In this document: positions 2,806 through 52,417 of the stretch, piece by piece
Layout: the number at the start of each line of letters is the position of its first letter
Numbering within the stretch: the first letter of the stretch is position 1
Assembly (NCBI GenBank): GCA_002842145.1
Contig: PHCF01000028.1
Location: forward strand, 1 to 52,417
Direction of reading: 5' to 3'
DNA length: 52,417 nt
Source: Betaproteobacteria bacterium HGW-Betaproteobacteria-6
GTDB lineage: Bacteria > Pseudomonadota > Gammaproteobacteria > Burkholderiales > Rhodocyclaceae
Translations under genes and position numbers: made by a program
The notes under the pieces: model-generated
The model's database searches: none
Told to the model about the DNA's origin: nothing
The model's input: only the letters and a program-made list of their open reading frames with translations

Positions 2806-4170
2806 ATGACCTTCTCCGCCCTCGGCCTCGCCGAAACGCTGCTCCAGTCCCTCGACACGCTTGGCTACAAGACGCCGACGCCGATTCAGGAGCAAGCCAT
2901 TCCCGCCATTCTCGAGGGGCGCGACGTGATGGCCGCGGCTCAGACCGGCACCGGCAAGACGGCCGGCTTCGCGCTGCCCATCCTGCACAGCCTGGCCACC
3001 GATGGCGTCAAGGTAGGCAGCAATTCGGTGCGCGCCCTCGTCCTGGTACCGACGCGCGAACTGGCCGAGCAGGTTCATGCCAGCTTCCGCCAATATGGCG
3101 AACATAGTGGTGTCAGCACCTACGCGGCCTACGGCGGCGTCAGCATCAACCCGCAGATGATGCGCCTGCGCCGTGGCGTCGACGTCCTCGTCGCCACCCC
3201 CGGCCGTCTACTCGACCTGTACAGCCAGAACGCCCTCAAGCTCAACAAGGTGCAGGTGCTCGTCCTCGACGAAGCCGACCGCATGCTCGACCTCGGCTTT
3301 TCCGGCGAACTCGATGCCGTCTTCGCTGCCTTGCCCAAGAAGCGGCAGACCCTGCTCTTCTCGGCCACTTTCTCCGAGGTCATCCGCAGCCTGGCCAAAG
3401 CCCGTCTGCGCAATCCGCTGACTATCGAAGTCAGCCCACGCAACAGCACGGTCAAGGCCGTCAAACAGTGGATGGTGCCGGTCGACAAGAAGCGCAAGAC
3501 CGAGCTCTTCCTGTTCATGCGCAAGGATAGGCGCTGGGGTCAGGTGCTGGTTTTCGTCAAGACCAAGCGCGGCGCCGATGAACTGGTCGGCATCCTGCAC
3601 GCCAAGCGCATCAAGGCCGACGCGATCCATGGCGACAAGCCGCAAGCGGCCCGCCTGCGTGCGCTGGAAAGCTTCAAGGCTGGCGAGGTGCAAATCCTTG
3701 TCGCCACAGACGTCGCCGCCCGCGGGCTGGACATCGACGACCTGCCGGTCGTCGTCAATTTCGACCTGCCCATCGTCGCCGAAGATTACATTCACCGCAT
3801 CGGTCGGACCGGCCGCGCCGGCGCCACCGGCGAAGCCATCTCGCTCGTCTGCGCCGACGAAGCCCCGTTGCTCGCCGCCATCGAAACCTTGCTCAAACAA
3901 ACGCTCAGCCGCGAAGAAGAACCGGGCTTCGAACCCGATCACCGGGTTCCACTGACCGGCGCCGCCGCCATCGCCACCAAGAAGATCAAAAAACCAAAGG
4001 TACCTGGCGGCCGGGGCGGCAAAGGCACGCCGAGCAACTGGGTCGGCTTCGACGATGCGCCCAAACGGCCCAGCGCCCGTCCGGCAGCCCGTCCGGCAGC
4101 CCGTCCGGGCGGAATGCCACGGTCAACCGGAAAAAACGGCCAAAAACAAAATCGTTCCGGCGGCCGCTGA
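2806..4170 (+). CDS. rhlE: DEAD-box ATP-dependent RNA helicase RhlE
   Basis: A 454 aa DEAD-box helicase that remodels RNA in ribosome assembly or decay. The start MTFSALGLAE is typical of RhlE; a TTG seven codons upstream is possible but less likely. Motifs in order are the Q motif (PTPIQEQAIP), Walker A (AQTGTGKTAGF), PTRELAEQ, VATPGRLLDL, VLDEADRMLDLGF, LFSATF, ATDVAARGLDID and HRIGRTGRAGATG. The C-terminal 80 residues are basic and low-complexity (ARPAARPAARP), as expected for RNA-binding tails. The last 15 or so codons overlap a copy of the dispersed 40-bp repeat and encode PRSTGKNGQKQN. Confidence 0.95.
   Translation: MTFSALGLAETLLQSLDTLGYKTPTPIQEQAIPAILEGRDVMAAAQTGTGKTAGFALPILHSLATDGVKVGSNSVRALVLVPTRELAEQVHASFRQYGEHSGVSTYAAYGGVSINPQMMRLRRGVDVLVATPGRLLDLYSQNALKLNKVQVLVLDEADRMLDLGFSGELDAVFAALPKKRQTLLFSATFSEVIRSLAKARLRNPLTIEVSPRNSTVKAVKQWMVPVDKKRKTELFLFMRKDRRWGQVLVFVKTKRGADELVGILHAKRIKADAIHGDKPQAARLRALESFKAGEVQILVATDVAARGLDIDDLPVVVNFDLPIVAEDYIHRIGRTGRAGATGEAISLVCADEAPLLAAIETLLKQTLSREEEPGFEPDHRVPLTGAAAIATKKIKKPKVPGGRGGKGTPSNWVGFDDAPKRPSARPAARPAARPGGMPRSTGKNGQKQNRSGGR
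4114..4152 (-). repeat. Dispersed 40-bp GTYGACCGTRG element, copy 1
   Basis: On the minus strand the core CCGGTTGACCGTGGCAT is preceded by GTTTTTGGCCGTTTTTT. The copy lies in frame inside the 3' end of rhlE and contributes the end of the helicase tail. Confidence 0.85.
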
Positions 4171-4201
4171 ACACCGGGCCGCAAACCGGGAAGCCTTCAG
4201 C

Positions 4202-4624
4202 TCAGCGCTTTTCAGGCACCTCGATGAAGTGCTTTCTCAGCCAGTCGCGGTCAAGCTCCCAGCTGACATCCTTGATCCCCGGCTGGGCCAGCACGATGGC
4301 CCGCGCCTCGGACTGCACCTCGCCCAGCAACTGCTCGGCGGCGATGAAAGCCGGATCGTTCGGGTTCTTGGTATCGATTTCCGGATAGAGAACGGCCAGG
4401 GCCTTGAAGGCGGGAACGTCAAAATTGCGCGGCGTACTGACCAGCGCCGTCGTGCCATTGACCTTCATGACCCAAAATTTGTACGGATAATTTTTCAGCT
4501 TCGGGCTGGCCTGCGCCTCGATGGCCCGGGTCAATTCGCGCGACCGTGAATCGGGTGCCTGGATGTACCAGTCAAGGCCGGCGAGCAAGACCAGAACGAC
4601 GATGACCCAGTAAGATTTTTTCAA
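4202..4624 (-). CDS. Membrane-anchored hypothetical protein
   Basis: A 140 aa protein beginning MKKSYWVIVVLVLLAGLDWY, an N-terminal membrane anchor or uncleaved signal. The remainder is probably periplasmic. It contains YPYKFWVMKVNGTTALVSTP, suggesting a beta strand-rich fold, and then a helical region ending RDWLRKHFIEVPEKR. No catalytic motif was recognised. It lies convergent to rhlE and downstream of the GGDEF gene on the same strand (51-bp gap), so the two could be co-transcribed. Function unknown. Confidence 0.65.
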   Translation of the reverse strand: MKKSYWVIVVLVLLAGLDWYIQAPDSRSRELTRAIEAQASPKLKNYPYKFWVMKVNGTTALVSTPRNFDVPAFKALAVLYPEIDTKNPNDPAFIAAEQLLGEVQSEARAIVLAQPGIKDVSWELDRDWLRKHFIEVPEKR

Positions 4625-4675
4625 TTCGATTTCCTCTTCCAGAATGACGAATGCGGCATCGATGCAGAAGTGCCA

Positions 4676-6822: not shown

Positions 6823-6827
6823 GGCCG

Positions 6828-7331: not shown

Positions 7332-8447
7332 TCACTCCCAGGCCAGCGCCCCGCCCGTCTGGTACTCGGTGACACGGGTTTCGAAGAAGTTCTTCTCCTT
7401 GCGCAGATTGGCCTGCTCGTCGAGCCAGGGCAGGACGTTTTCGGCGCCCGGGAACGGTTCGGCGACGCCGACCTGGCGGGCGCGCCGGTTGGCGATGAAG
7501 CGGAACTGGGCGACATGCAGCTCGGCGTTGTAGCCGAGGATCGGCTCCTTCAGGATGTAGCCGGCGTAGGCGGTTTCGGCCGCCTCGGCTTCGTCCCACA
7601 GTTGGCGCAGGGCGGCCGGGTCGAGCGTCAGGTTCTCCTCGATCAGCAGTTCGCGGATGACACGGATGCCGAAGGCGCAGTGCAGCACCTCGTCGCGCAT
7701 GATGTATTGCAGCTGCTCGGCGGCGCCCTTCATCAGGCCGCGCCGTTGCAGCGCGAAGACCGGCGTGAAACCGTTGTAGAACCAGCAGCCCTCGAAGATC
7801 ACCGCGAAGAAGAAGTAGGACAGCGCGAATTCGTGCAGGTTGGCGCGATCCTCGAGATCGAAGTCGGCGCGCATGACGCGCTCCAGCCGCCGGTTGGCGA
7901 AGGCGATCTTGCCGTGGATCTCGGGCACGACTCGGTAGCGGTTGTAGATTTCCTGCTGGTCGAGGCCGAGGCTTTCGATGCAGTGCTGGTAGGTCCAGGT
8001 GTGCAGCGCTTCCTCATAGACCTGGCGGGCCTGGTAGATCTGCAGTTCCGGGGCGCTCATCTTTTCCATGACGGCGAGGCCGATGTTGCGCATGGCCAGG
8101 ATGTCGGAGGTCGTCAGGTAGGCCAGCACGTTCTCGAAGACGTGGCGCTCGGCGGCGGACAGCTTGTGGTGGTAGTCGTGCACGTCCTGCGCCATGCCGA
8201 TTTCGAGCGGCGTCCAGTGGTTGCGGTTGGCTTTCAGGAAGAACTCCCAGGCCCACGGGTACTTGAACGGCGCCAGCTGGTTGATGTCGGCCTTGCCATT
8301 GACGATGCGCTTGTCGGCGGCGTTGATCGGGGCCAGGGCGGCGAGGCTTTCCATTTTTGGCAAAAAATCCCGGTTGACCGTGGGAACCGGCGGGCGAGCC
8401 GGGGAGGCTGGTGAATCCCAGTCGTCGAAGCGAAAAGCTGCATTCAT
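7332..8447 (-). CDS. nrdB: Ribonucleotide reductase class Ia beta subunit NrdB
   Basis: A 371 aa protein that carries the di-iron tyrosyl radical cofactor needed by NrdA. All ligands can be placed at E. coli-like spacing: D115, E146, H149, E219, E253 and H256. The radical tyrosine is Y153 in EEALHTWTY, so this is a tyrosyl-radical enzyme and not the Tyr-less class Ic type. It is the last core gene of a minus-strand operon nrdA - two mini-ORFs - btuF-like - nrdB and lies 24 bp after the btuF-like gene. Residues 22-32 (PTVNRDFLPKM) are encoded by a copy of the dispersed 40-bp repeat, in the variable N-terminus before the fold. Confidence 0.95.
   Translation of the reverse strand: MNAAFRFDDWDSPASPARPPVPTVNRDFLPKMESLAALAPINAADKRIVNGKADINQLAPFKYPWAWEFFLKANRNHWTPLEIGMAQDVHDYHHKLSAAERHVFENVLAYLTTSDILAMRNIGLAVMEKMSAPELQIYQARQVYEEALHTWTYQHCIESLGLDQQEIYNRYRVVPEIHGKIAFANRRLERVMRADFDLEDRANLHEFALSYFFFAVIFEGCWFYNGFTPVFALQRRGLMKGAAEQLQYIMRDEVLHCAFGIRVIRELLIEENLTLDPAALRQLWDEAEAAETAYAGYILKEPILGYNAELHVAQFRFIANRRARQVGVAEPFPGAENVLPWLDEQANLRKEKNFFETRVTEYQTGGALAWE
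8350..8386 (+). repeat. Dispersed 40-bp element, copy 2
   Basis: ATTTTTGGCAAAAAATCC is followed by CGGTTGACCGTGGG. The copy lies inside the 5' part of nrdB, antisense to the gene and in frame, encoding TVNRDFLPKM. Confidence 0.9.

Positions 8448-9500: not shown

Positions 9501-9504
<4 letters not shown>
9397..9504 (-). CDS. Mini-ORF 1: first repeat of the NrdA C-terminal tail
   Basis: A 35-codon ORF whose ATG overlaps the nrdA stop (ATGA), so translational coupling is possible. The peptide begins MKLDQPLRRVAAQANLVC, has basic VKRSGRSH, and ends NPECEACQ like NrdA itself. The tail uses GAG-GCC-TGC-CAG where nrdA uses GAA-GCA-TGC-CAA. All these changes are silent, which hints at selection on the peptide. 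Alternatively the unit is a non-coding palindromic repeat that happened to copy the gene end. Function unknown. Confidence 0.5.
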
Positions 9505-12266
<2,762 letters not shown>

Positions 12267-12429
12267 GGCGATTCTCCGTATCGGGGGGCGGAGAACCGAG
12301 TGCGCGATTTGCCGGCAGCCGCGCACCGAGGCCGCGGGCGCAAACCCGGCAAAGCTTGGCGACAACGGATGAACGGCAGCAGACCACGCAAAAACCTCTC
12401 GTCAGGGACACCCCGCCCCAAAAACATGA

Positions 12430-12615
12430 AAGAAATTTGTCGCGGCAGGTCTCCTGGCTCTCGGTTCATCGCGTTTCACCGCCTTCCCAGTCCGCAGACC
12501 AGTGGCAGAGAGGCGAAACGCTCGCCGATTACAGTTGCGGGGGCAGCCCCGGAATTCAGACCTTGCGGCCCGGCACCGGATTCCCGTTTTAATCCCCGGA
12601 AGGGAACCATCAACG
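12430..12615 (-). ncRNA. Cobalamin (B12) riboswitch controlling the nrdA operon
   Basis: Read on the minus strand, the order is typical: GGGAATCCGGTGCC, then CTGCCCCCGCAACTGTAATC, then GCCACTGGTCTGCGGACTGG, GGGAAGGCGG and the near-perfect B12 box GAGCCAGGAGACCTGCC. The aptamer starts close to the predicted transcription start and ends about 165 bp before the nrdA start codon. Binding of adenosylcobalamin is expected to lower expression of nrdA, the btuF-like gene and nrdB. I did not identify a clear intrinsic terminator between the B12 box and nrdA, so the mode of control (Rho, translation or other) is open. Confidence 0.95.
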
Positions 12616-12621
12616 GCGCCG

Positions 12622-12650
12622 AGTCTAACGACGACGCATGCCACCGTCAA
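12622..12650 (-). promoter_or_regulatory. Sigma70-type promoter of the nrd operon
   Basis: The minus strand has TTGACG (12645-12650), a 17-bp spacer and TAGACT (12622-12627). This places the transcription start near 12615, at the first bases of the cobalamin riboswitch. The match and position are both good; no transcription data were available. Confidence 0.7.
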
Positions 12651-12754: not shown

Positions 12755-14131
12755 ATGCGTCCCCTAGCCTTCGTCGACCTAGAAACCACCGGCGCCACCG
12801 CCACCCATGACCGCATCACCGAAATCGGCATCGTTGAAGTCGACGCCGACGGCACCGTGCGCGAATGGCAGCAACTGGTCAATCCCGGCATGCGGATTCC
12901 GCCCTTCATCGAACAACTGACCGGCATCTCCAACGACATGGTGGCCGACGCGCCACCGTTCGAGGCGGTCGCTGCCGAAACCATGAAGCGCCTGGAAGGC
13001 CGGCTGTTCATCGCCCACAACGCGCGCTTCGACTACGGCTTCCTGAAAAACGAGTTCAAGCGCCTCGGCATCACCTTCCGCGCCTCCGTGCTGTGCACCG
13101 TCAAGCTGTCGCGCGCGCTGTTTCCCGAGCACAAGCGGCACAACCTCGACAGCCTGATCGAGCGTCACGACCTGCAGGCCGAGGCGCGTCACCGGGCGCT
13201 AGCCGATGCCCAGCTGATATTTCAATTTTGGCAAAAAATTCGGGTTGACCGTAGCAACGAACAAATCGAGGCCGCGCTCAAGGCGCAGAACGCCCACCCC
13301 AGCCTGCCGCCGCATCTCGATGCCGGAATCATCGACGAATTGCCGGAAGGCCCCGGCGTCTATCTGTTCTACGGTGAAAACAACCTGCCTCTCTACGTCG
13401 GCAAGGCCAAGGACATCCGCCAGCGCGTGCTCTCTCATTTTGCCGGCGACCACAGCGCTGCCAAGGAAATGGAACTGGCCCAGCAGGTCAAGCGCATCGA
13501 CTGGATTGAGACGGCGGGTGAAATCGGCGCCCTGCTCAAGGAGTCGGCACTGGTCAAGCAGTTGAAACCGACGCACAACCGCCAGCTGCGCAAAAATGAC
13601 GAAGCCTGCACGTGGACGCTGGTCGATGAAGGCGAAGGCTGGCTGCGCCCGCAGCTCGTCGCACTGGCCGACCTCGACGCCGGCCTGACCAGCGCCTGCT
13701 ACGGCCTGTTCAAGACGACCAAGGAGGCCAACAACGTTCTGCGCGCCCTGGCCGAATCGCACAACCTGTGCGATGTGCTGCTCGGTCTGGAAAAAGCCAA
13801 GCCCGGCAAGCCCTGTTTCGGCCACCAGCTCCGGCGCTGCAAGGGGGCCTGCGTCGGCGCCGAGCCCTACGCCAAACACACGGTTCGCCTGATCTCCGCC
13901 CTCGTCGGCCTCAAGCTCGTCGCCTGGCCCTTCACCGGCCCCGGACTGGTCCGTGAAGGCGACGAAATCCACCTGATCGAAGGCTGGCGCTATCTCGGCA
14001 GCGCCGCCACGGACGAAGAACTGCACGCCCTGCTCGACAACCCGCGCCCGCCGTTCGACCGCGACATCTACAAGATCCTGACCAAATACGTCGGCAAGCT
14101 GATTCCGCTATCATCGAGCCGTCCCTCCTGA
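12755..14131 (+). CDS. DnaQ-like 3'-5' exonuclease fused to GIY-YIG (UvrC-N/Cho-like) nuclease
   Basis: A 458 aa two-domain nuclease. The N-terminal exonuclease domain (about 1-155) has the DEDDh motifs FVDLETTG (Exo I), HNARFDYGFL (Exo II) and the final HRALADAQ with H and D (Exo III). The GIY-YIG domain (about 200-285) has GPGVYLFYGENNLPLYVGKA and a downstream ESALVKQLKPTHN containing the metal-binding glutamate. The C-terminal part has cysteines (CFGHQLRRCKGAC), as in Cho-type proteins. Such fusions are annotated as epsilon-like or excinuclease Cho proteins in DNA repair. The joint between the two domains is encoded by a dispersed 40-bp repeat (FWQKIRVDRSN). It is divergent from the nrd operon. 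Confidence 0.9.
   Translation: MRPLAFVDLETTGATATHDRITEIGIVEVDADGTVREWQQLVNPGMRIPPFIEQLTGISNDMVADAPPFEAVAAETMKRLEGRLFIAHNARFDYGFLKNEFKRLGITFRASVLCTVKLSRALFPEHKRHNLDSLIERHDLQAEARHRALADAQLIFQFWQKIRVDRSNEQIEAALKAQNAHPSLPPHLDAGIIDELPEGPGVYLFYGENNLPLYVGKAKDIRQRVLSHFAGDHSAAKEMELAQQVKRIDWIETAGEIGALLKESALVKQLKPTHNRQLRKNDEACTWTLVDEGEGWLRPQLVALADLDAGLTSACYGLFKTTKEANNVLRALAESHNLCDVLLGLEKAKPGKPCFGHQLRRCKGACVGAEPYAKHTVRLISALVGLKLVAWPFTGPGLVREGDEIHLIEGWRYLGSAATDEELHALLDNPRPPFDRDIYKILTKYVGKLIPLSSSRPS
13220..13258 (+). repeat. Dispersed 40-bp element, copy 4
   Basis: TTTCAATTTTGGCAAAAAATT is followed by CGGGTTGACCGTAGCAACG. The copy is sense and in frame at the linker between the exonuclease and GIY-YIG domains, encoding FWQKIRVDRSN. 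Confidence 0.9.
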
Positions 14132-16882: not shown

Positions 16883-16993
16883 GTCGGCGCGGGTCGGTTT
16901 TGAATTTCCCGAAAGTAAGCGCCGCGTGTTACGACCCCATGACAAACGGCAATCGAACGCATTGCGCGCGCCCTTGTCGTACCGCTACCGACT

Positions 16994-17030
16994 TTGATTT
17001 TGGCCGTTTTTCCCGGTTGACCGTAGCATC
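16994..17030 (+). repeat. Dispersed 40-bp element, copy 5
   Basis: GATTTTGGCCGTTTTTCCC is followed by GGTTGACCGTAGCATCC. The copy is intergenic, in the 254-bp gap between the divergent btaA and the small gene at 17137. Apart from an AT-rich stretch after it (about 17031-17060), nothing else was seen in that gap. Confidence 0.9.
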
Positions 17031-17136
17031 CGGAATTCTGTAAATAATTGATACAAATCGTCGCAAAAACACCCACCGAAAATCGGGCATTCGGGGCAAA
17101 ACTGCCGGTCTACTGATTTTGCAGAAGGAGTCACCG

Positions 17137-17484: not shown

Positions 17485-18960
17485 ATGAAACGTAATTCAC
17501 TCCAAATGACCGTCGCCGCCATTGCCGTTGCCGCCGCCGTCGGCGGTGCCTATTCGCTCGGCCAGAATACGACTTTCGGCAACGCCCATGCCGCGACCCA
17601 ACCGACGGCCGCCGTCGTCGCCGCCCCGGCCCCAGCCGTCAGCGTTGCCATCCCCAATGGCCTGCCCGACATGCGCAGCATCGTCGCCGGCAACGCCCCG
17701 GCCGTGGTCAACATCAGTGTCACCGGCACGCGCAAGACGGCGGCCAACCTGCCCGACCTCCAGCAGATGGACCCGAACGACCCGTTCTTCCAGTTCTTCC
17801 GCCACTTCCGCGGCCAGATGCCGGAAAGCAACCAGCCGACCCGCGGCCTCGGCTCCGGCTTCATCGTCACGGCCGACGGCACAGTGCTGACCAACGCCCA
17901 CGTCGTCGATGGTGCCGATGAAGTCACCGTCAAGCTCAACGACAAGCGCGAATTCAAGGCCAAGGTACTCGGCCTCGACAAGGCCAGCGACGTCGCCGTA
18001 CTGAAAATCGATGCCAAAAACCTGCCAACGGTAAAGCTTGGCACCTCGCTGCAAACCCAGGTCGGCGACTGGGTGCTCGCCATCGGCTCGCCCTACGGCT
18101 TTGAAAGCAGCGCCAGCGCCGGCATCGTCTCGGCCAAGTCGCGCAACCTGCCGGACGGCAGCTACGTCCCCTTCATCCAGACCGACGTCGCGGTCAATCC
18201 CGGCAACTCCGGCGGCCCGCTGTTCAACATGAACGGCGAAGTCATCGGCATCAACTCGCAGATCTACTCGCGTAGCGGCGGCTACCAGGGCCTCTCCTTC
18301 GCCATTCCGATTGAAGTCGCGATGAATGTCGAAAAGCAGATCGTGACCAACGGCAAGGTCCAGCGCGGCAAGCTCGGCGTCAGCATCCAGGAAGTCAATC
18401 AGTCGCTGGCCGACACCTTCGGCCTGGCCAAGCCGGCCGGCGCGCTGGTCGCCTCCGTCGAAAAAGGCAGCCCGGCCGCCAAGGGCGGACTGGAACCGGG
18501 CGACGTCATTCTCGGCATCGACGGCAAAACCATAGAAAACTCGGGCGAATTGCCGGCCGCTGTCGCCATCAAGGTGCCAGGCGAAACCGCCCGCCTGCAA
18601 GTCTGGCGCAAGGGCGAAACGCGCAACATCGACATCAAGGTCGGTAGTTTCGGCGACGAGAAAGTGGCAGCCAGCGAAGACTCATCCGCCAACAAGGGCC
18701 GCCTGGGTGTCGCGGTTCGCCCGCTGACCCCGGAAGAACAGCGCCAGACTGAAGTCAAAGGCGGCCTGCTCGTTGAACAATCGGGCGGCGCAGCCGGCCG
18801 GGCCGGCATTCGCCCGGGCGACATCATTGTTTCGGTCAACGGCCAGCCAATCGGCGATATCGACCAGCTACGCAGCATCATCGCCAAATCCGGCAAGAAA
18901 GCCGCCATCCTGATCGAACGCGGCGATTCGCGAATATTCGTCCCGGTCGACCTGGGCTAA
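17485..18960 (+). CDS. Periplasmic serine protease, DegP/DegQ (Do) family
   Basis: A 491 aa periplasmic protease and chaperone that degrades misfolded envelope proteins. An N-terminal signal segment (about 8-36) is followed by an alanine-rich linker. The catalytic triad is H139 (TNAHVVDG), D169 (SDVAVLKI) and S242 (NPGNSGGPLF). Two PDZ domains follow (about 290-380 and 405-490), with GLEPGDVILGIDGKTI and GIRPGDIIVSVNGQPI. The MPESNQPTRGLGSGF segment is the substrate-loop region. The gene ends at a strong intrinsic terminator. DegP, DegQ and MucD cannot be told apart from the sequence alone. Confidence 0.92.
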   Translation: MKRNSLQMTVAAIAVAAAVGGAYSLGQNTTFGNAHAATQPTAAVVAAPAPAVSVAIPNGLPDMRSIVAGNAPAVVNISVTGTRKTAANLPDLQQMDPNDPFFQFFRHFRGQMPESNQPTRGLGSGFIVTADGTVLTNAHVVDGADEVTVKLNDKREFKAKVLGLDKASDVAVLKIDAKNLPTVKLGTSLQTQVGDWVLAIGSPYGFESSASAGIVSAKSRNLPDGSYVPFIQTDVAVNPGNSGGPLFNMNGEVIGINSQIYSRSGGYQGLSFAIPIEVAMNVEKQIVTNGKVQRGKLGVSIQEVNQSLADTFGLAKPAGALVASVEKGSPAAKGGLEPGDVILGIDGKTIENSGELPAAVAIKVPGETARLQVWRKGETRNIDIKVGSFGDEKVAASEDSSANKGRLGVAVRPLTPEEQRQTEVKGGLLVEQSGGAAGRAGIRPGDIIVSVNGQPIGDIDQLRSIIAKSGKKAAILIERGDSRIFVPVDLG

Positions 18961-18964
18961 ACGT

Positions 18965-18998
18965 CAAAAAGGCCGTTCAAACGAACGGCCTTTTTTCT
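18965..18998. terminator. Bidirectional intrinsic terminator after the Do protease
   Basis: AAAAAGGCCGTTC, an AAAC loop, then GAACGGCCTTTTTT. The perfect stem is flanked by A and T runs, so it can terminate both the protease transcript (plus) and the convergent gene at 19028 (minus). Confidence 0.92.
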
Positions 18999-22060: not shown

Positions 22061-22660
22061 CTAAGTAGAAAGCGCGCCGGCCGGGCCGCCCGGCACTTCA
22101 ATTTGGGCCGGCAGGTCAACATCCTTGAGCACGCCGGGATCGTCGACCGGACAGCTGACCAGCGTCGCTGGATTGGCCTCGACAATAGCTTTGCCGCCCT
22201 GGTCGCCGCTCAGTGCCAGCAGCGCTTCCCGATACGCCACGCCAAAGCCGACCGGATGGCCGGGACGTCCTTCGTGGGTTGGCCGGGCCAACGCCGCCCC
22301 GCCCTGCATGGCGTTCAGGGCGGCACGGTAGCTGGCCGTCTGGATGTAGGGCATGTCGGCAAGCGCGACGAGCCAGCCGGCTGCGTCGGCGCTGGCCGCG
22401 ACACCGGCGCTCAGGCTGTGGCCCATGCCCTGCTCCGCCTCTGCGCAGACGACGGTTTCCAGCCCCTCAGTTGCCAGCAGGCTGGCCAGCACCTGGTCGC
22501 CGGGCCGGAGAACGACGACGGTGCGCGAACAGACGGCGGCCAGTTGGCGGGCCGCTGCGAGCGCCATCGGCGTCCCGTCGGGCAGTGGCTGCAGCCGCTT
22601 GTCGGCCCCGAAACGCCGACTGCTGCCGGCAGCCAGCAAAATGCCGACAATCTGGCTCAT
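22061..22660 (-). CDS. mocA: Molybdenum cofactor cytidylyltransferase (MocA-like)
   Basis: A 199 aa NTP transferase. It has the nucleotide-binding start GILLAAGSSRRFGADKRLQP, the metal site region LVALADMPYIQTASY and GRPGHPVGFG. MocA attaches CMP to molybdopterin, giving the MCD cofactor used by xanthine dehydrogenase-family enzymes. Its ATG overlaps the xdhC stop (ATGA), so the two are translationally coupled. Together with iorAB this makes a self-contained enzyme plus cofactor-maturation set. Confidence 0.9.
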   Translation of the reverse strand: MSQIVGILLAAGSSRRFGADKRLQPLPDGTPMALAAARQLAAVCSRTVVVLRPGDQVLASLLATEGLETVVCAEAEQGMGHSLSAGVAASADAAGWLVALADMPYIQTASYRAALNAMQGGAALARPTHEGRPGHPVGFGVAYREALLALSGDQGGKAIVEANPATLVSCPVDDPGVLKDVDLPAQIEVPGGPAGALST

Positions 22661-23652
22661 GCGACGCGGCAGGCGAAGGAATCCGGGACTCCCACGGTCG
22701 ACCGGACATTTTGCCCATTTTTCACAGCGGTCATTTCGGCCAGGATGGAGACGGCAATTTCCGGTGGTGTCCGGCTGCCGATGGGCAGGCCGACCGGGCC
22801 GTGCAGGCGATCCACTTCGGCTTGCGAGAGGTCGAAATACTGGAGCAGGCGTTCGCGCCGCTTGCTGTTGTTGGCTTGCGAGCCAAGGGCGCCGACGTAG
22901 AAGGCCGGGGACTTGAGTGCTTCGAGCAGGGCCAGGTCGTCGAGCTTGGGATCGTGGGTCAGCGCCACCACCGCGCTGCGCGGGTCCAGAGCCAGTTCCG
23001 TGACGGCATCGTCGGGCATGGCGGCGATGCGCTCGATGCCGGGAACATCCCAGCCGTCGGCATACTCGCTGCGAGGGTCGCAAATATACACACGGTAACC
23101 GAGGGCCTGCGCCATGGTCGCCAGGTAGCGCGATATCTGCCCGGCGCCGATGATCAACAGCCGCCAGGTCGGGCCGTGTAGCGTGACCAAGGTCTGGCCG
23201 TCCCACTGCTGGCTGTCGCCGGCGCTGCCGCCTTCGAGGCTGACCGCGCCGGTCGCCAGCACCAAGCGCCGATGCACCAGTTGGCCCGTGCCGATACGTT
23301 GGGCGAGTTGTTCGAGCAAGGCGGCATCCGGCGCCGGTTCAAGGACCAGTTCCAGCGTGCCGCCGCAAGGCAGCCCGAAGCGATGCGCCTCGTCGGCCGT
23401 CACGCCGTAACGCAGCAGGCGCGGCGCGCTGCCGGCAAACTCGCCGGCCGCCGCGCGACGAATCAAATCATCCTCGATGCAGCCGCCGGAGACCGACCCC
23501 AGGACCTGTCCGTCATCGCGCAGGATCATCCAGGCGCCGGGCGGACGCGGGGCGGAACCCCAGGTCCGGGCGACGGTGATCAGCGCGAAGCGATGCCCGG
23601 CCGCTGCCCATGTGCGGGCAGCGTCGAGTACCTGTGTATCCAGGCTGTCCAT
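22657..23652 (-). CDS. xdhC: XdhC/CoxI family molybdenum-enzyme maturation protein
   Basis: A 331 aa protein that carries the sulfurated molybdenum cofactor and inserts it into the hydroxylase. The N-terminal XdhC/CoxI domain has [13 protein letters not shown] and [12 protein letters not shown]. The Rossmann domain has [45 protein letters not shown] and the typical end [20 protein letters not shown]. The last 16 or so residues ([13 protein letters not shown] and on) are encoded by a dispersed 40-bp repeat and lie beyond the conserved fold. It overlaps mocA by ATGA. Confidence 0.92.
22690..22726 (-). repeat. Dispersed 40-bp element, copy 6
   Basis: On the minus strand GAAAAATGGGCAAAATGTCC is followed by GGTCGACCGTGGGAG. 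The copy is sense and in frame at the 3' end of xdhC. Confidence 0.85.
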
Positions 23653-23653: not shown

Positions 23654-25837
23654 TCAGGCCACCAGCTCGGCGGTATTGAACGGCATCTTGTGCAGGAACT
23701 TGCCGGTTGCCGCCGCGATGGCATTGGCCACGGCCGGAGCCAGCGGTGGTACGCCAGGCTCGCCGATGCCGGTCGGGGCGGCAGTTGACGGCACGATATG
23801 CACTTCGACCACCGGCATTTCATTGATCCGTATCGGCGCGTAGCCATCGAAATTGCCCTGCTCGACACGGCCTTCCTTGAGCGTGATTTCGCCGTGCAAG
23901 GCGGCCGACAGCGCGAATCCTACCGCGCCTTCAACCTGCGAACGGATGTTGTCCGGATTGATCGCCGTGCCGCAATCGACGGCGCAAATCACACGGTCGA
24001 CCTTGAGCGAACCGTCTTTCCTGACCGTCACTTCGGCCACCTGTGCTACGAAGGAGTTGAACGACTCATGGACCGCCACACCCCGGCCACGCCGTTCTCC
24101 GGCTGCCGCCTTGAGCGGCGTTCCCCAGGCGGCTTTCTCGGCGGCCAGCTTGAGCACGCCGACATGTTTGGGATGCTCGGCCAGCAGCTCAAGACGCAGG
24201 GCCACCGGGTCCTTGCCCATAGCCGCCGCCACCTGATCAAGAAACACCTCGGTCGAGTACGCCGTGTGCGAGGAACCGACCGAGCGCCACCAGAGAACCG
24301 GCACGCCGATATCGGTCGGCGTATGCAGGTCGACCAGCAGGTTGGGGATGGCATACGGCAGATTGGCGGCGCCTTCGACCGAAACATGATCGATGCCGTC
24401 CTTGACCAGCATGGCCTCGAATGGCGAGCCGGTAATGATCGACTGGCCGACCAGCCGGTGATGCCAACCGACCAGCTTGCCGCTGCCATCGAGCGCCGCC
24501 TCCAGCGCGTGGTGGAACATGGGCCGGTAATAGCCGCCGCGCATGTCGTCCTCACGCATCCAGACCAGCTTGACGGGCGCCCTCCCGTTGATCGCCTTGA
24601 CGATGTGCGCCGCCTCCAGCACGTAGTCCGACTGCGTACAGGCCCGACGGCCGAAACTGCCGCCGGCGTAGAGCATGTTGAGCTTGACCTGCTCGGGCTT
24701 GAGGCCGAACAAGGCGGCGACCCGGCCTTGGTCGACCGTCTGGAACTGCTCGCCATTCCACACTTCGCAGCTATCGGCCTTGCGCCAGACGACACAGTTC
24801 ATCGGCTCCATGGCGGCATGGGCGAGGTAGGGAAAATCGAAGGAGGCGCTGACCACCTTGGCGGCGCCGGCAAAGGTTTTCGCCGTGTCGCCTTTGTTCG
24901 CAGCAACCAGACCGGGCTTCTTGGCCATTTCCTTGTATTTGGCCAGAATTTCGTCGCTGCCCAGCTTGAAAGCCTTGCTGTCGTCCCAGGCCACCGACAG
25001 GGCATCGCGGCCTTTCTTGGCGCTCCACGTATCGGTAGCCAGCACGGCGACGCCCTGCGGAATCTGCACGACATCGACAACGCCCTTGATAGCCTTGGCC
25101 TTGCTCGCGTCGAACGACTTCACCGTGGCGCCGAACTGCGGCGGGTGGGCGACGACAGCGACCAGCATGCCGGGCAGGAAAACGTCCTGAGTAAATTGCG
25201 CCGTGCCGTTGGTCTTGGCCGCGCTGTCCTTGCGCCTGGCCTGCTTGCCGATCAGGCGAAAATCCTTGGGATCCTTGAGTTTGACCTCGGTCGGCACCGT
25301 TTCCTTGGCAGCATCGAGCGCCAGTTCGCCAAAACTGGCCTTGCGGCCGCTGCCGGCATGGCTAACCACGCCGTCGCGGACGACAATTTCCGCCGCGCCG
25401 ACATTCCAGCGCCTGGCGGCAGCGGATACCAGCATGGCCCGCCCGGCGGCGCCGGCCTTGCGCATCTGGTCCCAGGAATTGGCCATCGCCGTGCTGCCGC
25501 CGGTGCCCTGCGCCGGACCCCAGAAGGTATTGTTGTAGCGCTTGGCGTCGGCCGGCGCCCCTTCGACGCGAACGTGTTTCCAGTCGGCATCCAGCTCGTC
25601 GGCCAGGATCGTTGCCAGACCAGTGTAGGTGCCCTGCCCCATTTCGAGGTGCTTGGACATGACGGTGACGCTGTTGTCGGCGCCGATTTTCAAAAATGCG
25701 TTAATTTCCGCGTCGACCGTAGCAACGGTGCCCAACTTGCCTGCGGCGACGGCTGGCAGGCAAAAACCCAGCGTCAGGCCAGCGCTGCCTTGCAGGAAAC
25801 GACGGCGGCTGAGGTTTTCAATGATGATATCGCTCAT
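23654..25837 (-). CDS. iorB: Molybdopterin-binding oxidoreductase subunit (IorB/aldehyde oxidase type)
   Basis: A 727 aa large subunit of a xanthine dehydrogenase-family hydroxylase. The N-terminus has a Tat signal ([16 protein letters not shown]), so the folded complex is exported. Cofactor motifs include [53 protein letters not shown] and the terminal [23 protein letters not shown] with the catalytic glutamate region. The architecture matches isoquinoline 1-oxidoreductase beta and related periplasmic aldehyde dehydrogenases. The real substrate is unknown. Residues just after the signal ([12 protein letters not shown]) are encoded by a dispersed repeat. It lies downstream of iorA by 11 bp, then xdhC and mocA follow. 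Confidence 0.92.
25687..25726 (+). repeat. Dispersed 40-bp element, copy 7
   Basis: TTTTCAAAAATGCGTTAATTTCC is followed by GCGTCGACCGTAGCAACGG. The copy is antisense and in frame within iorB, right after the Tat signal. Confidence 0.8.
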
Positions 25838-26484: not shown

Positions 26485-27418
26485 ATGGATATTGCCGTTC
26501 TGACCACTCCTCGCCCAAATGATTCCAACGCCATGGAAAACGCCGATCTGGCGCGCCAGCGCGCGGAACTCGCCGCCATCATCGGCCGCCACTGCCCTGG
26601 CGATGGCACGGTGGATACGGCCATTCCCAACCTCAAGCTTTTCCGCGGATCGAACACCGAGGTACCGAACTGCGCCATCATGACATCGGTGTTCGCCATG
26701 ATGGCCCAGGGAGCCAAGCGCATCACGGTCGGCGACGACACCTACGACTACGATGCCCGCCATTACCTCATTTCATCGGTCGATCTGCCGATTTTTGCGC
26801 GCATCACACAGGCCTCCATTGCCGAGCCCTACCTTGGCCTGGGGCTCGCCATCGACCCGCTCAAGATCAACGAACTGACCGCCGCCATGCCCAAAAATCG
26901 GGCATTTGAAGGCGTTGACCGTGGCATTGCCGTCGGCCTGCTCAACGTCGACATCCAGAACACCGCGCTGCGCCTCGCCCGATTGCTCGATACGCCAGCC
27001 GACATCCCGGTACTCGCCCCGATCATCGAGCGCGAGCTGCTCTACCGACTACTCACCGGCCCTCTCGGCTCACGCCTGCGCCAGGCCGCCGCCAGCGGCA
27101 GCCACAGCCACCAGATCGTGCGCGCCATCGACTGGCTCAAAACCAACCTCGACCAACCGCTCAGCATCGAACGGCTGGCCAGCCTGGCGAACATGAGCCG
27201 GTCGTCGCTGCACCATCATTTCAAGGCGCTAACCGCCATGACGCCGCTGCAATACCAGAAGCAGCTGCGCCTGCAGGAAGCCCGCCGCCTCATGCTGGTC
27301 AGCGACACCGATGCCGCCTCGGCGGCGCATCACGTCGGCTACGAAAGCCCCTCGCAACATGTTCGGCGCCCCACCGGGCCGCGATGTCGCCCAGTTTCGC
27401 CAGAGTCAAACCACCTGA
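26485..27418 (+). pseudogene. AraC-family regulator (AraC_N type), frameshifted in the second helix-turn-helix
   Basis: The first frame encodes an AraC_N-type effector domain ([20 protein letters not shown] on) and the first DNA-binding helix-turn-helix ([20 protein letters not shown]) up to GYESPSQ. The expected next residues (like FSREYxRMFG) are missing, and the frame shifts. The family end resumes in another frame as [19 protein letters not shown] before TGA at 27416. This fits a deletion of about 17 bp near 27355-27362. It is divergent from iorA and would be its regulator. An in-frame ATG at 26533 is an alternative start. It is either a pseudogene or a sequencing/assembly error. Confidence 0.75.
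26889..26929 (+). repeat. Dispersed 40-bp element, copy 8 (divergent)
   Basis: CCCAAAAATCGGGCATTTGAA is followed by GGCGTTGACCGTGGCATTG. The copy is sense and in frame inside the AraC gene (FEGVDRGIA). It has the core but a weaker AT tract. Confidence 0.65.
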
Positions 27419-27467
27419 ACCTCCGCCAGCCACGCTGGTCAGACTTGGCCACCTCAAGGAAACAAGC

Positions 27468-27866
27468 ATGCCGAAAATCGAAAAAACCGACGCCGAATGG
27501 CGTGCCCAGCTCGATGAAACCGAATACCGCGTCACCCGCCAGAAAGGCACCGAACGCGCCTTCACCGGCAAATATTGGGACACCCACGAAGACGGCACCT
27601 ACCACTGCATCTGCTGCGGTGCCCCGCTCTTCCGCTCCGAGGCCAAGTTCGATTCCGGCTGCGGCTGGCCGAGCTTCCACACACCGAACGACGAAAAACT
27701 CATCGACGAGCACGTCGACCGCAGCGTTGGCATGATCCGCACCGAAGTTACCTGCCACGACTGCGGCGCCCACCTCGGCCACGTCTTCGACGACGGCCCC
27801 GCACCGACGGGCGTGCGTTACTGCATCAATTCGGCGTCGCTGAAGCTGGAGAAGGACGAGGAGTGA
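27468..27866 (+). CDS. msrB: Peptide-methionine (R)-S-oxide reductase MsrB
   Basis: A 132 aa enzyme that reduces methionine-R-sulfoxide in oxidised proteins. It has the zinc site pairs [11 protein letters not shown] and [19 protein letters not shown], the substrate motif [13 protein letters not shown], and the C-terminal [11 protein letters not shown] with the catalytic cysteine. Full length and intact. The start [11 protein letters not shown] follows AAGGAAACAAGC. It lies 49 bp after the broken regulator. Confidence 0.95.
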
Positions 27867-31981: not shown

Positions 31982-31985
31982 GCCA

Positions 31986-32026
31986 ATCCCACGGTCAACC
32001 GGAAATTTTGGCTAAAAATGAAATAG
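31986..32026 (-). repeat. Dispersed 40-bp element, copy 9
   Basis: On the minus strand TTTCATTTTTAGCCAAAATTTCC is followed by GGTTGACCGTGGGATT. The copy is intergenic, five bases after the MFS stop codon, between two convergent genes. Confidence 0.9.
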
Positions 32027-38808: not shown

Positions 38809-39222
38809 ATGGCCGAGCAACATCATCTCGCCATCACCACGCGCGGGCGCGGTTCCGTCGAGATCACCGACGAAATCGCGACCGTAGTCAGGAATGCTAC
38901 GGTCGACGCCGGAATTGCCCACATTTTCGTGCGCCATACGAGCTGCGGCCTGGCCATCACCGAGAACGCCGACGCCAGCGTCCGCCGCGATCTCGAAACC
39001 CTCATGCAACGCTGGGCGCCGGACGGCGACCCGGCCTACCACCACGACCTCGAAGGCAACGACGACATGGCCGCCCACGCCCGCTCGCTGCTCACCGGCG
39101 TCTCGCTGACCATTCCCTTCGCCGGCCGCCGCCTGCTGCTCGGCACCTGGCAGGGCATCTACCTGTTCGAACACCGAACGCAAGGTCATCGCCGGGAAAT
39201 CGTCGTCACGCTCCTCGGCTGA
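38809..39222 (+). CDS. YjbQ/UPF0047 family protein
   Basis: A 137 aa protein of the YjbQ (UPF0047) family, some members of which have weak thiamine-phosphate synthase activity. It has the family signature HIFVRHTSCGLAITENADAS, then DDMAAHARSLLTGVSLTIPF and GTWQGIYLFEHRTQGHRREI. Histidines likely bind metal. The strand before the signature (ATVDAGIAHIFV) is encoded by a dispersed 40-bp element. Confidence 0.92.
   Translation: MAEQHHLAITTRGRGSVEITDEIATVVRNATVDAGIAHIFVRHTSCGLAITENADASVRRDLETLMQRWAPDGDPAYHHDLEGNDDMAAHARSLLTGVSLTIPFAGRRLLLGTWQGIYLFEHRTQGHRREIVVTLLG
38893..38930 (-). repeat. Dispersed 40-bp element, copy 10 (divergent)
   Basis: On the minus strand CGAAAATGTGGGCAATTCC is followed by GGCGTCGACCGTAGCATTCC. 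The copy is antisense and in frame within the yjbQ-like gene. Confidence 0.7.
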
Positions 39223-39924: not shown

Positions 39925-39966
39925 CATTTCATTTTTGGGCCTTTTTTCCGGTTGACCGTAGTAATC
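39925..39966 (+). repeat. Dispersed 40-bp element, copy 11
   Basis: TTTCATTTTTGGGCCTTTTTTCC is followed by GGTTGACCGTAGTAATC. The copy is intergenic between the convergent genes ending at 39911 and 39983. It is among the best matches to the consensus. Confidence 0.92.
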
Positions 39967-42141: not shown

Positions 42142-42220
42142 GTCGGCAGCTCGGTGAAAGTCAAGCTCCGAATTATGCCACGGCACTAGAAATGGCGCGC
42201 CGGACAATAGCTGATGCCGC

Positions 42221-42256
42221 TGCTACGGTCGACCGGAAAAACAGCTCAAAACCGAC
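42221..42256 (-). repeat. Dispersed 40-bp element, copy 12
   Basis: On the minus strand GGTTTTGAGCTGTTTTTCC is followed by GGTCGACCGTAGCAGC. The copy is intergenic, in the 279-bp divergent gap before the TonB receptor. The rest of that gap holds only an AT-rich, promoter-like patch near 42320-42350. Confidence 0.8.
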
Positions 42257-42420
42257 CGCGCATGACAGCAGCAACAGCGCGCCGATCCGACATCGTTGAA
42301 CGCCGTCGACTCGCCGAAAATCAATCACTATAGTTGTGAAAAATCCGAGTTCCGAAAAAGCAAGCACAACCAGACAAGAGAACCCCGCGGGACCGGGAAT
42401 TCAGGAGGAGGGGTATAAAA

Positions 42421-48576: not shown

Positions 48577-49515
48577 ATGACCTATAAAGTCTTTGTCGAC
48601 GGCCAGGAAGGCACGACCGGCCTGCAGATCAACGAATACCTCGCCAAGCGCAGCGATGTCGCGCTGCTCCGGATCGACGCCGACAAGCGCAAGGATCTGG
48701 CCGAACGCAAGCGGCTGATCAACGAATCCGACGTCACTTTCCTGTGCCTGCCCGACGAGGCTGCCAAGGAGTCGGTGACGCTCGTCGACAACCCGAATAC
48801 CTGCGTCATCGACGCATCGACGGCACACCGGGTCAATCCGGAATGGACTTTCGGCCTGCCCGAGCTGGCCCCCGAGCAACGGGCGAAAATCCGCGCCAGC
48901 AAGCGCATCGCCAACCCCGGCTGCCACGCCAGCGCCTTCATCCTGGCGCTGCGTCCGCTCGTCGCCGCCGGCCTGCTGCCGGCCGCCACGCAGATCGCCG
49001 CCAACTCCATTACCGGCTATTCCGGCGGCGGCAAGTCGATGATCGCCCAGTACCAGAGTCCGCAACGCATCGATGCGCCGCGCGCCTACGGCCTCACGCT
49101 GGCTCACAAGCACCTGCCGGAAATGCAGGCATATACCGGGTTGACCGTAGCACCGATCTTCCAGCCCATCGTCGGTCCGTTCTATAAGGGTCTGGCCGTC
49201 ACCGCCTTCATCCATCCGCAGCAATTCACGCGCCCGGCAACGCCGGCCGACGTGCAGAAGATCATCGCCGACTACTACACCGGCGAGCCGTTCATCCGCG
49301 TCCTGCCGGTCGATCTCGAGGCGACCACCGATGGCGGCTTCTACAACGTCGAAGCCAACAACGACACCAACCGCGTCGACATCGCCGTCTTCGGCAACGA
49401 TGAACGCATGCTGCTCATCGCCCGCCTCGACAATCTCGGCAAGGGCGCCTCGGGCGCCGCCGTGCAGGCAATGAACGTGCATCTTGGCGTTGAGGAAAGT
49501 CTCGGGCTGGTCTGA
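48577..49515 (+). CDS. argC: N-acetyl-gamma-glutamyl-phosphate reductase (ArgC, short type)
   Basis: A 312 aa enzyme of arginine synthesis that reduces N-acetylglutamyl phosphate to the semialdehyde with NADPH. The short type is seen from [20 protein letters not shown] and length. The catalytic cysteine lies in [11 protein letters not shown] (about 115). [11 protein letters not shown] and [13 protein letters not shown] follow. Codons for GLTVAPI are part of a copy of the dispersed repeat core. Full length. Confidence 0.93.
49121..49152 (+). repeat. Dispersed element, copy 13 (core only)
   Basis: ATATACCGGGTTGACCGTAGCACC keeps the core and a short AT step but lacks the long AT tract. The copy is sense and in frame inside argC. 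Confidence 0.5.
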
Positions 49516-49526
49516 TCGGCACGCTC

Positions 49527-49973: not shown

Positions 49974-49975
49974 GC

Positions 49976-51089: not shown

Positions 51090-51193
51090 TGAAGTCATCC
51101 TGAAACAAAATTGAAATGAACGGGGCGCATTGGAACACGCCAATATTTCACTCCCTTTACAAGTGCGCCGCTTCCCCTATCATTCGCCCCACC

Positions 51194-52417
51194 ATGACTG
51201 TCGCCTCCCCCCGCATCCTGAGCATCATCCCGCCGATGACCCAGCTCAACACGCCCTACCCGGCGACCGCCTACCTGACCGGCTTCCTTCGTTCGCGGGG
51301 CTTTCAGGCCGAGCAGACCGATCTGGCGCTGGCCCTCGTCCTCGAACTGCTGTCGCCGGCCGGCCTGCCGAAGATCAAGGCGGCGGCGGAAGCCATCCCC
51401 GGCAAGAAGCGCTCGAATACGATCAAGATTTTCCTCAACGAGTTCACGCGCTACCAGGCCAGCATAGCCCCGGCCATTGCCCTGCTCCAGGGCCGCGACG
51501 GCTCGATCGCGCACCGCATCTGCACCCGCGCCTTCCTGCCCGAAGGGCCGCGCTTCGCCTCGCTCGACAACTATCTCGACGAAGACGGCGGCGACCCGCT
51601 GGCCTGGGCTTTCGGCTCGCTCGGCGTACAGGACCGGGCGCGGCATCTGGCGACGCTCTACCTCAACGATCTGGCCGACGTGTTGCGCGAGGCGGTCGAC
51701 ACCCGTTTCGAGTTCGTCCGCTACGCCGAATCGCTGGCCCAGAGCCAGGCCAGCTTCAATCCGCTGGCCACCGCACTGGCCGCGCCACCGACGCTGGTCG
51801 ATACGACACTTCAAAATTTGGCCAAAATTGCCGTTGACCGTAGCAATCCGGACATCGTGCTGATTTCCGTGCCCTTCCCCGGCTCGGTCTATGCCGCCTT
51901 CCGCATCGCCCAGACGATCAAGGCGCAGAATCCGAAGATCATCACCGTCCTCGGTGGCGGCTACGTCAATACCGAGCTGCGCGAACTGGCCGAGCCGCGC
52001 GTTTTCGATTATTTCGACTACGTCACCCTCGACGATGGCGAAAAGCCGCTGCTCGCGCTGTTCGAGCACCTCGCTGGCGAGCGCCCGCGTCTCAACCTCG
52101 TCCGCACCTTCACCCGCGTCGATGGCGCCGTGCGCTATTTCAACGCCAGCGAGCCCGACATCCCCTTCGAGGAAGTCGGCACGCCGACCTGGGACGGCCT
52201 GACGCTCGACCGCTACCTGTCGCTGCTCGACATGCTCAATCCCATGCACCGCCTGTGGTCGGACGGGCACTGGAACAAGCTGACCGTCGCCCACGGCTGC
52301 TACTGGAAGAAATGCAGCTTCTGCGACGTCAGCCTCGACTACATCGGCCGCTACGACGCGGCCAGCGCCAAGGTGCTGGTCGACCGCATCGAGCAGATCA
52401 TCGCCGAAACCGGCCAC
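51194..52417 (+). CDS. B12-binding-domain radical SAM protein, N-terminal part (runs off window)
   Basis: 408 codons without a stop; the gene continues past the right edge. It starts MTVASPRILSIIPPMTQLNT, a typical B12-binding radical SAM start. The Rossmann part contains IVLISVPFPGSVYAAFRIAQ and IITVLGGGYVNTELRELAEP. The cluster site is AHGCYWKKCSFCDVS, again with four residues between the first two cysteines. Codons for NLAKIAVDRSN are a copy of the dispersed repeat, in the joint before the B12-binding fold. Substrate unknown. Confidence 0.88.
   Translation, partial: MTVASPRILSIIPPMTQLNTPYPATAYLTGFLRSRGFQAEQTDLALALVLELLSPAGLPKIKAAAEAIPGKKRSNTIKIFLNEFTRYQASIAPAIALLQGRDGSIAHRICTRAFLPEGPRFASLDNYLDEDGGDPLAWAFGSLGVQDRARHLATLYLNDLADVLREAVDTRFEFVRYAESLAQSQASFNPLATALAAPPTLVDTTLQNLAKIAVDRSNPDIVLISVPFPGSVYAAFRIAQTIKAQNPKIITVLGGGYVNTELRELAEPRVFDYFDYVTLDDGEKPLLALFEHLAGERPRLNLVRTFTRVDGAVRYFNASEPDIPFEEVGTPTWDGLTLDRYLSLLDMLNPMHRLWSDGHWNKLTVAHGCYWKKCSFCDVSLDYIGRYDAASAKVLVDRIEQIIAETGH
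51810..51849 (+). repeat. Dispersed 40-bp element, copy 14
   Basis: TTCAAAATTTGGCCAAAATTG is followed by CCGTTGACCGTAGCAATCC. The copy is sense and in frame in the radical SAM gene and encodes KIAVDRSN, the same frame and nearly the same peptide as copy 4. Confidence 0.9.

What the first reader, a model, noticed from the sequence alone, without database searches (positions are those of the whole stretch)
4114..51849. Unrecognised dispersed element: invariant GTYGACCGTRG core with phased AT tracts, 14 copies in 52 kb
Seen directly: 14 copies (4114, 8350, 11548, 13220, 16994, 22690, 25687, 26889, 31986, 38893, 39925, 42221, 49121, 51810), nine on the plus and five on the minus strand. All share GTYGACCGTRG; most also share CCGGT before it and a preceding TTTTTGGCCAAAATTTC-like tract. 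The core is centred on a near-palindrome (CGGTYGACCG). With uniform base use about 0.1 matches to the core would be expected by chance in this window. Known uptake signal sequences (for example of Pasteurellaceae) also consist of a short invariant core plus AT tracts at helical spacing, and are tolerated inside genes. By inference this could be a DNA uptake sequence, a chromosome-organising or segregation site, or a very short mobile palindrome. I know of no described family with this core.
Basis: partly seen in the sequence, partly recalled or inferred. Interest (0 to 1): 0.92.

Follow-up and report, generated by a model that had tools for sequence, protein, structure and literature searches.

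The report
Likely new bacterial DNA uptake sequence
Many species of one genus of environmental bacteria (the Azonexus/Dechloromonas group) carry hundreds of copies of a short DNA signature that looks, in most computational tests made here, like the 'self' tag some bacteria use to choose which free DNA to take up, a trait known best from two other bacterial families.

Summary
GTYGACCGTRG occurs 14 times in the window (0.1 expected) and 742 times in the genome (reversed control 10). The full element is about 40 bp: aTTTcAAtTTTGGcCntTTTTtCCGGTTGACCGTaGcAatc. Across a genus of 76 species that includes Azonexus/Dechloromonas MAGs, the shared part is GTYGACCG with an A/T tract two helical turns upstream and a weaker one at one turn. 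Forty species carry 308-1142 matches, 12 carry 33-140, 24 carry 4-28. 241 sampled genomes of 67 other genera of the family have 0-13. Species use different 3' dialects. Copies show no replichore polarity. Perfect cores far outnumber single-mismatch cores. In one gene compared over 30 species the element arose by substitution, not insertion. None lies in a 34-kb island in comEC. The known Neisseria-type core gives a like profile in this assay. Best reading: another, separately evolved DNA uptake sequence, laid out like Haemophilus USS. Uptake and receptor are not shown; competence genes do not track the motif. The paper searches made here found no prior description.

The parts
4112..4151 (-). 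element copy, inside rhlE-like helicase gene (2806-4170)
8349..8388 (+). element copy, at the 5' end of or just before the nrdB-like gene (ORF 7332-8447 on -; start codon uncertain)
11547..11586 (+). element copy inside nrdA-like gene (9501-12266, - strand)
13220..13259 (+). element copy inside DEDD exonuclease/GIY-YIG gene (12755-14131); compared over 30 species, no gap
16992..17031 (+). element copy, intergenic
22687..22726 (-). element copy inside xdhC-like gene (22657-23652)
25688..25727 (+). element copy inside molybdopterin-binding oxidoreductase gene (23654-25837)
26890..26929 (+). element copy inside AraC-type regulator gene (26485-27735); AT tracts shorter than usual
31984..32023 (-). 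element copy, intergenic between convergent genes
38892..38931 (-). element copy inside yjbQ (38809-39222)
39927..39966 (+). element copy, intergenic between convergent genes
42218..42257 (-). element copy, intergenic; not matched by the dialect-free pattern
49116..49155 (+). element copy inside argC (48577-49515)
51809..51848 (+). element copy inside a gene with weak B12-binding/radical-SAM similarity (51194 to window end; matches below the curated cut-offs)
18944..18970 (-). further match to the dialect-free pattern (GTCGACCG with phased AT tract)
27695..27721 (+). further match to the dialect-free pattern

Best explanation
The element is a DNA uptake sequence of the Azonexus/Dechloromonas group. 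A sequence-specific receptor, probably a minor type IV pilin on a transformation pilus, would bind the GTYGACCG core plus its species-specific 3' extension, while the helically phased A/T tracts upstream help the DNA bend or kink for entry through the outer membrane. Preferred uptake of tagged DNA, followed by homologous recombination, would make the motif accumulate by mutation and biased replacement at tolerant places, inside genes as well as between them, giving hundreds of near-perfect copies. Shown: abundance, layout, dialects, no polarity, substitution origin in the gene compared in depth, absence from one mobile island. Inferred: receptor, uptake bias, bending.
For: 742 copies in the genome vs 10 for the reversed pattern. 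Forty of 76 genus members have 308-1142 dialect-free matches, their reversed controls 1-16; 241 sampled genomes of 67 other genera in the family have 0-13, controls 0-20. A W-rich stretch near -19..-16 in all 10 sampled motif-rich genomes, a second near -9..-5 that is strong in G000, G409, G442 and G465 and weak (one or two positions) in G401, G404, G430 and G445. Moving the tract out of phase drops perfect-core counts from 85 to 1.5 (G000), 80 to 2.2 (G409), 107 to 1.8 (G307). Excess of perfect over single-mismatch cores: 83.5 vs 10, 77.8 vs 1.8, 105.2 vs 5 in these, and the same direction in the other four motif-rich genomes tested (33.5 vs 2, 33 vs 2.2, 27.8 vs 6, 17 vs 4.2); PMC1626085 (passages) names this as an attribute shared by USS and DUS. 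Dialects around a constant inner core, as PMC3630211 describes for DUS (passages). The exonuclease gene is ungapped at the element in all 30 species compared, the best 30 of 75 with a match. A 33.7-kb island holds 0 of the 7 GTYGACCG in 55 kb. Density rises with GC in the three 20-stretch samples, rho 0.64-0.69, though the element is AT-rich. Only 2 viral contigs hold TTTCCGGTTGACCGTRGCA. No strand bias by replichore. The known core GCCGTCTGAA shows a like profile in one genus of the order, 247-4285 copies in 9 genomes, both strands.
Against: No uptake experiment exists here and no receptor was found. ComEC is found in 71 of 76 genus members whatever their motif status, so competence genes do not track the motif. 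ComEA (TIGR00426) is not over its cut-off in 9 of 76, of which five are motif-rich: G419, G426, G431, G447, G465 (G431 and G447 are under 80% complete, G426 and G465 are 100%). comEC is interrupted in motif-rich G428, which could be recent. A FimT-like pilin tested as receptor candidate did not track the motif: near-full-length matches at 47-100% identity are in six motif-rich species (one the source) and two motif-poor ones, G420 and G460, while 34 of 40 motif-rich species have none. Elements are hardly more conserved between close species than their flanks (0.91 vs 0.89-0.90). 24 of 76 species have under 30 matches. In G404 (5 stretches) density falls with GC (rho -0.67, p 0.22). The motif-poor G406 has GTCGACCGC at the exonuclease site without the AT tracts, so part of the core there is ancestral coding sequence. 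Rarity in viral contigs is weak evidence, since it is unknown how many of them infect this genus.
Confidence: 0.75

Rival explanations
1. A genome-wide binding site of an unknown nucleoid or chromosome-organising protein (not polar), comparable in abundance to cyanobacterial HIP1 (recalled), maintained by selection for chromosome structure.
For: Random to slightly even spread over sampled stretches (variance/mean 0.25-1.08 in five genomes), both strands, near-palindromic core, AT tracts that could bend DNA; competence genes do not track the motif.
Against: Abundant in 40 and nearly absent in 24 species of one genus, dialect change between species, absence from an acquired island, a codon change from His to Phe at the exonuclease site. 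An essential organiser would be expected to be more constant.
Confidence: 0.12
2. A self-identity mark for defence or recombination (for example a Chi-like hotspot or a site that exempts self DNA from an immune system).
For: Absent from one foreign island and rare in viral contigs; genus-limited.
Against: No strand polarity by replichore, unlike Chi or KOPS; a 40-bp site with helically phased tracts is unlike restriction or Chi sites (recalled).
Confidence: 0.08
3. A small mobile or REP-like repeat that spreads by insertion.
For: High copy number, strong consensus, some palindromic pairs in G307 (12 with AT tracts on both sides in 400 kb). Four of 14 sites had no alignment in any of 7 relatives, so insertion was not tested there.
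Against: At 13220-13259 species without the element align without gaps; yjbQ of G449 and G399 likewise. Where one search shows larger gaps beside an element (11-27 bases, at sites 22692, 25712, 31989, 38897), the extra bases are in the relative (G465 or G409), not in the window.
Confidence: 0.03
4. Codon-usage or composition artefact.
For: About 10 of 14 window copies lie in predicted coding sequence, and the exonuclease site already had GTCGACCGC in a motif-poor species (G406).
Against: Reversed-pattern control 10 vs 742; dinucleotide shuffles; other genera of the family 0-13; loss of signal when the AT tract is shifted.
Confidence: 0.01

Closest known systems
Uptake signal sequence (USS) of Pasteurellaceae, Hin and Apl types
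   Same: Short strong core plus two AT-rich segments on one side, at spacings of about one helical turn; perfect copies outnumber near-misses; arises by mutation; subclade-specific cores (PMC1626085, passages).
   Different: Core sequence unrelated (AAGTGCGGT / ACAAGCGGT there; GTYGACCG here); lineage is Azonexaceae; density of core+AT is 11-34 per 100 kb in the motif-rich samples against close to one per kb for USS; receptor unknown.
DNA uptake sequence (DUS) of Neisseriaceae
   Same: Dialects around a constant inner core, intragenic and intergenic copies, overlapping inverted pairs in one species (PMC3630211, passages); like search profile.
   Different: Core GCCGTCTGAA is at background here (2-12 copies in the 6 genus members searched); DUS has no flanking AT motifs (PMC1626085, passages); no ComP counterpart was identified here.
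HIP1, KOPS, Chi, REP (recalled)
   Same: Abundant short chromosomal motifs.
   Different: No polarity, no insertion signature at the gene compared, long asymmetric layout with phased tracts.

Membership tests
DNA uptake sequences (USS/DUS) | Hundreds to thousands of copies, far above chance, on both strands | tested here: met
   368 + 374 copies, control 5 + 5; 40 of 76 species 308-1142
DNA uptake sequences (USS/DUS) | Strong consensus: more perfect than single-mismatch copies | tested here: met
   7 of 7 motif-rich genomes tested, e.g. excess 83.5 vs 10, 77.8 vs 1.8, 105.2 vs 5
DNA uptake sequences (USS/DUS) | Arises by mutation in place, tolerated in genes | tested here: met
   ungapped alignments of 30 species at one site, two motif-poor species at a second; 4 of 14 sites could not be aligned; about 10 of 14 copies coding
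DNA uptake sequences (USS/DUS) | Clade-specific dialects around a shared inner core | tested here: met
DNA uptake sequences (USS/DUS) | Rare in foreign DNA | tested here: met
   0 of 7 core sites in a 33.7-kb island, the only island examined; 2 viral contigs; rise with GC in three of three larger samples
DNA uptake sequences (USS/DUS) | Competence machinery present | tested here: inconclusive
   ComEC 71 of 76, ComEA over cut-off 67 of 76, 15 type IV pilin-like N termini over cut-off in G000; not tied to motif status; five motif-rich species without ComEA over cut-off
DNA uptake sequences (USS/DUS) | Sequence-specific pilin receptor (ComP; PpdA/ComN proposed) | tested here: inconclusive
   GspH/FimT-type pilins in 69 of 76; one FimT-like candidate did not track the motif
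DNA uptake sequences (USS/DUS) | Raises uptake or transformation of DNA that carries it | not testable with these tools
   needs an uptake assay
Pasteurellaceae USS | Core AAGTGCGGT or ACAAGCGGT with AT segments on one side | tested here: not met
   layout alike but core differs
Neisseriaceae DUS | GCCGTCTGAA-type core | tested here: not met
   2-12 copies in the 6 genus members searched
REP or other insertion repeats | Inserted copies, gaps in orthologues | tested here: not met
   (one gene, 30 species), in part
KOPS / Chi | Orientation bias along replichores | tested here: not met
   Fisher p 0.58-1.0 by half of the contig in five genomes; 0.11 and 0.85 by GC-skew sign in two; sampled stretches only

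The most novel reading that the evidence does not exclude
The element is not for uptake but a new kind of genome-wide self-identity mark, gained, re-spelled or lost repeatedly within one genus, read by an unknown DNA-binding protein that organises the chromosome or separates self from foreign DNA.
Probability: 0.15. Interest if true: 0.92.

Novelty: new variant of a known kind. Interest (0 to 1): 0.8.

Why it matters
Uptake sequences are best known from two families (Pasteurellaceae, Neisseriaceae), and why they evolve is disputed (recalled). A further origin, in an environmental genus where 40 species are rich in the motif, 24 nearly lack it and several spell it differently, would give a natural experiment: receptor and motif can be compared across close relatives with opposite states. 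It would also suggest that the design of a core plus phased AT tracts arose more than once, which points to a physical requirement of uptake such as bending. Azonexus/Dechloromonas are common in wastewater sludge (recalled), where gene exchange is of practical interest.

Tried and rejected
Replichore polarity: the listing of G307 first looked all-plus; the listed part was cut off at the first places, and sampled stretches showed both strands. Competence-gene loss as explanation of motif-poor species: not supported. GspH/FimT pilin as receptor: my extraction of the pilin from 30 loci failed in 12 and seems to have taken a neighbouring pilin in some others, so no alignment was built on it; a genus search with one FimT-like protein gave no matching pattern. 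Higher conservation of elements than flanks: no clear difference. A viral scan with ArgC found nothing. In one search, 4 of the 14 sites (4117, 39951, 42223, 49140) had no alignment in any of 7 relatives, so the insertion test rests mainly on one gene. The stretches of the own genome were taken from contigs listed, that is contigs known to hold copies, so their density is slightly too high (20.9 against 17.2 per 100 kb genome-wide). Gene models in the window are my own heuristic, partly backed by family matches. The literal-string paper search found 34 papers with GGTTGACCGT, of which 15 were listed and none opened; the listed titles are on unrelated subjects.
Full report
What is there. GTYGACCGTRG occurs 14 times in the 52-kb window, nine times on + and five on -; 100 dinucleotide shuffles gave 0.10 on average and never more than one. 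In the genome that holds the window (4,315,322 bases, 226 contigs, 93.9% complete) it occurs 368 + 374 times, the reversed control 5 + 5 times. Alignment of the window copies and of 79 and 72 copies from sampled stretches of this genome and of G409 shows a long element. The consensus over 165 copies with the AT tract is aTTTcAAtTTTGGcCntTTTTtCCGGTTGACCGTaGcAatc. In G000 and G409 the A/T tracts start about 9 and 19 bp before the core, one and two helical turns.

Whose genome. A scan of named genomes with a 30-base pattern of this dialect gave 83 stretches in eight MAGs, labelled Azonexus, Dechloromonas, Azonexaceae, Rhodocyclaceae or only Betaproteobacteria, Gammaproteobacteria or Proteobacteria. 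I therefore take the genus as the Azonexus/Dechloromonas group (NCBI Azonexaceae, Rhodocyclales); the genus name is an inference.

Distribution. In 399 genomes sampled from the order, the 11-mer is high only in this genus: 41-742 in its six sampled members against at most 47 elsewhere. In the 76 genus members searched it ranges from 4 to 822. K-mer surveys of 17 sampled genomes (40-400 kb each) showed why: motif-rich relatives use other bases after the core (CGCAGCA-type in G404, G430 and G445; CGTGRAA and palindromic pairs in G307; CGCAG and CGTGG in G465), around GTYGACCG with the A/T tract near -19..-16; the tract near -9..-5 is weak in G401, G404, G430 and G445. Seven sampled motif-poor genomes showed no such word. 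A dialect-free pattern, WWWW-N7-W-N7-GTYGACCG, then split the genus: 40 species with 308-1142, 12 with 33-140, 24 with 4-28; reversed controls were 0-16. In the family, 8 members of the genus had 72-962 and 241 genomes from 67 other genera 0-13. A species whose dialect changed the core itself would be missed by this pattern. On a tree of one gene from 30 species the motif-rich state needs at least 3 changes by well-supported branches, so it was gained or lost more than once, or moved.

Behaviour of the element. (a) No strand bias by replichore in sampled stretches. (b) Counts per 20-kb stretch are near-random to slightly even. (c) With the A/T tract in phase, perfect cores exceed a shifted-tract control by 83.5, 77.8 and 105.2 in the three larger samples, single-mismatch cores by only 10, 1.8 and 5; four smaller motif-rich samples go the same way. 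PMC1626085 describes this strong consensus as a puzzling attribute shared by USS and DUS (passages). (d) In the exonuclease gene at 12755-14131 all 30 species compared (the best 30 of 75 matches) align without gaps. Seven high-copy species read a form like TTTCAATTTTGGCAAAAAATTCGGGTTGACCGTAGC; other motif-rich species carry dialect or partial forms; motif-poor species read codons such as CACCAGTTCTGGCAGAAGATCCAC, though motif-poor G406 has GTCGACCGC there without the tracts. The element was thus built by substitutions, including a His codon becoming Phe, on a sequence that partly resembled the core. At yjbQ two motif-poor species are likewise ungapped; four of the 14 window sites had no alignment in any of seven relatives. 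(e) In G428 a 33.7-kb island with a large serine recombinase, a Type ISP restriction enzyme and a replication module has no GTYGACCG, whereas the 21 kb around it fetched with it has seven. (f) Density rises with GC in the three 20-stretch samples (rho 0.64-0.69); of five samples with 5 stretches four rise and one, G404, falls. (g) Two viral contigs contain a 19-mer of the element; I did not work out what these are.

Positive control. Searched the same way, the Neisseria core GCCGTCTGAA lit up one genus of the order, nine genomes with 247-4285 copies on both strands, and was at background (2-12) in six members of the present genus; one unrelated genome had 57 + 11.

How it most likely works. 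I read it as a DNA uptake sequence. The layout, a core with two A/T segments on one side about a helical turn apart, is that of the Pasteurellaceae USS, for which core and flanking motifs were proposed to allow kinking during entry (PMC1626085, passages). Dialects around a fixed inner core, and overlapping inverted pairs in one species, are described for Neisseriaceae DUS (PMC3630211, passages), where ComP binds the sequence; a minor pilin, PpdA/ComN, is the predicted receptor of USS (PMC12616744, passages). Receptor, uptake bias and bending are inferred here.

What speaks against it. Competence genes do not track the motif: ComEC is found in 71 of 76 species, and ComEA above cut-off in 67 of 76, with five motif-rich species, G419, G426, G431, G447 and G465, among the nine without. 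G428 is motif-rich though its comEC is interrupted. One FimT-like pilin did not track the motif. Elements are not clearly more conserved than flanks (0.91 against 0.89-0.90). The searches of the paper library listed no uptake sequence and no transformation study in this group; listings were partly capped, and subscription journals and preprints are not held, so prior description cannot be ruled out.

Verdict. Observation confirmed and much larger than reported. Probably a further lineage with uptake sequences, new core, own dialects; function to be tested.

Noticed in passing
L341-L343 (G428 contig 33, about 109.6-143.3 kb): A 33.7-kb low-GC island with a large serine recombinase, CHAT-domain protein, Type ISP restriction enzyme, family-B DNA polymerase and D5/VapE-like primase splits comEC. 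In G449 the ComEC domain is split by about 32.5 kb at nearly the same domain position, so comEC may be an integration site that switches off transformation.
   Followed up: partly
comEC of G416, G408 and G406: ComEC pieces in two frames (G416), on two contigs with a stop (G408) or truncated to a 236-aa frame (G406): comEC looks broken in several species of the genus.
   Followed up: no
L173 (G465), at the sites equivalent to window 25712 and 38897: Next to the element position G465 has 27 extra in-frame bases in two different genes compared with the window; by eye the two inserts look alike at several positions. Unexplained.
   Followed up: partly
L080-L099 (G307): Many cores are palindromic (CGGTCGACCG 49 times in 400 kb), 12 with A/T tracts on both sides; two opposed copies share one core and could form a hairpin.
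   Followed up: partly
exonuclease gene of G436, G462, G444 (L132, L131, L134): A motif-poor clade keeps the A/T tracts and a near-core GCCGACCG at the element site: decay after loss, or another dialect.
   Followed up: partly
window 12427-12627, - strand: Cobalamin riboswitch upstream of the nrdA-like gene.
   Followed up: no
G495, G550, G584 and G540 (other genera of the family): A few full-looking elements (for example in G495 contig 6 and G584 contig 143) among 3-13 matches per genome, possibly DNA acquired from the motif-rich genus.
   Followed up: no
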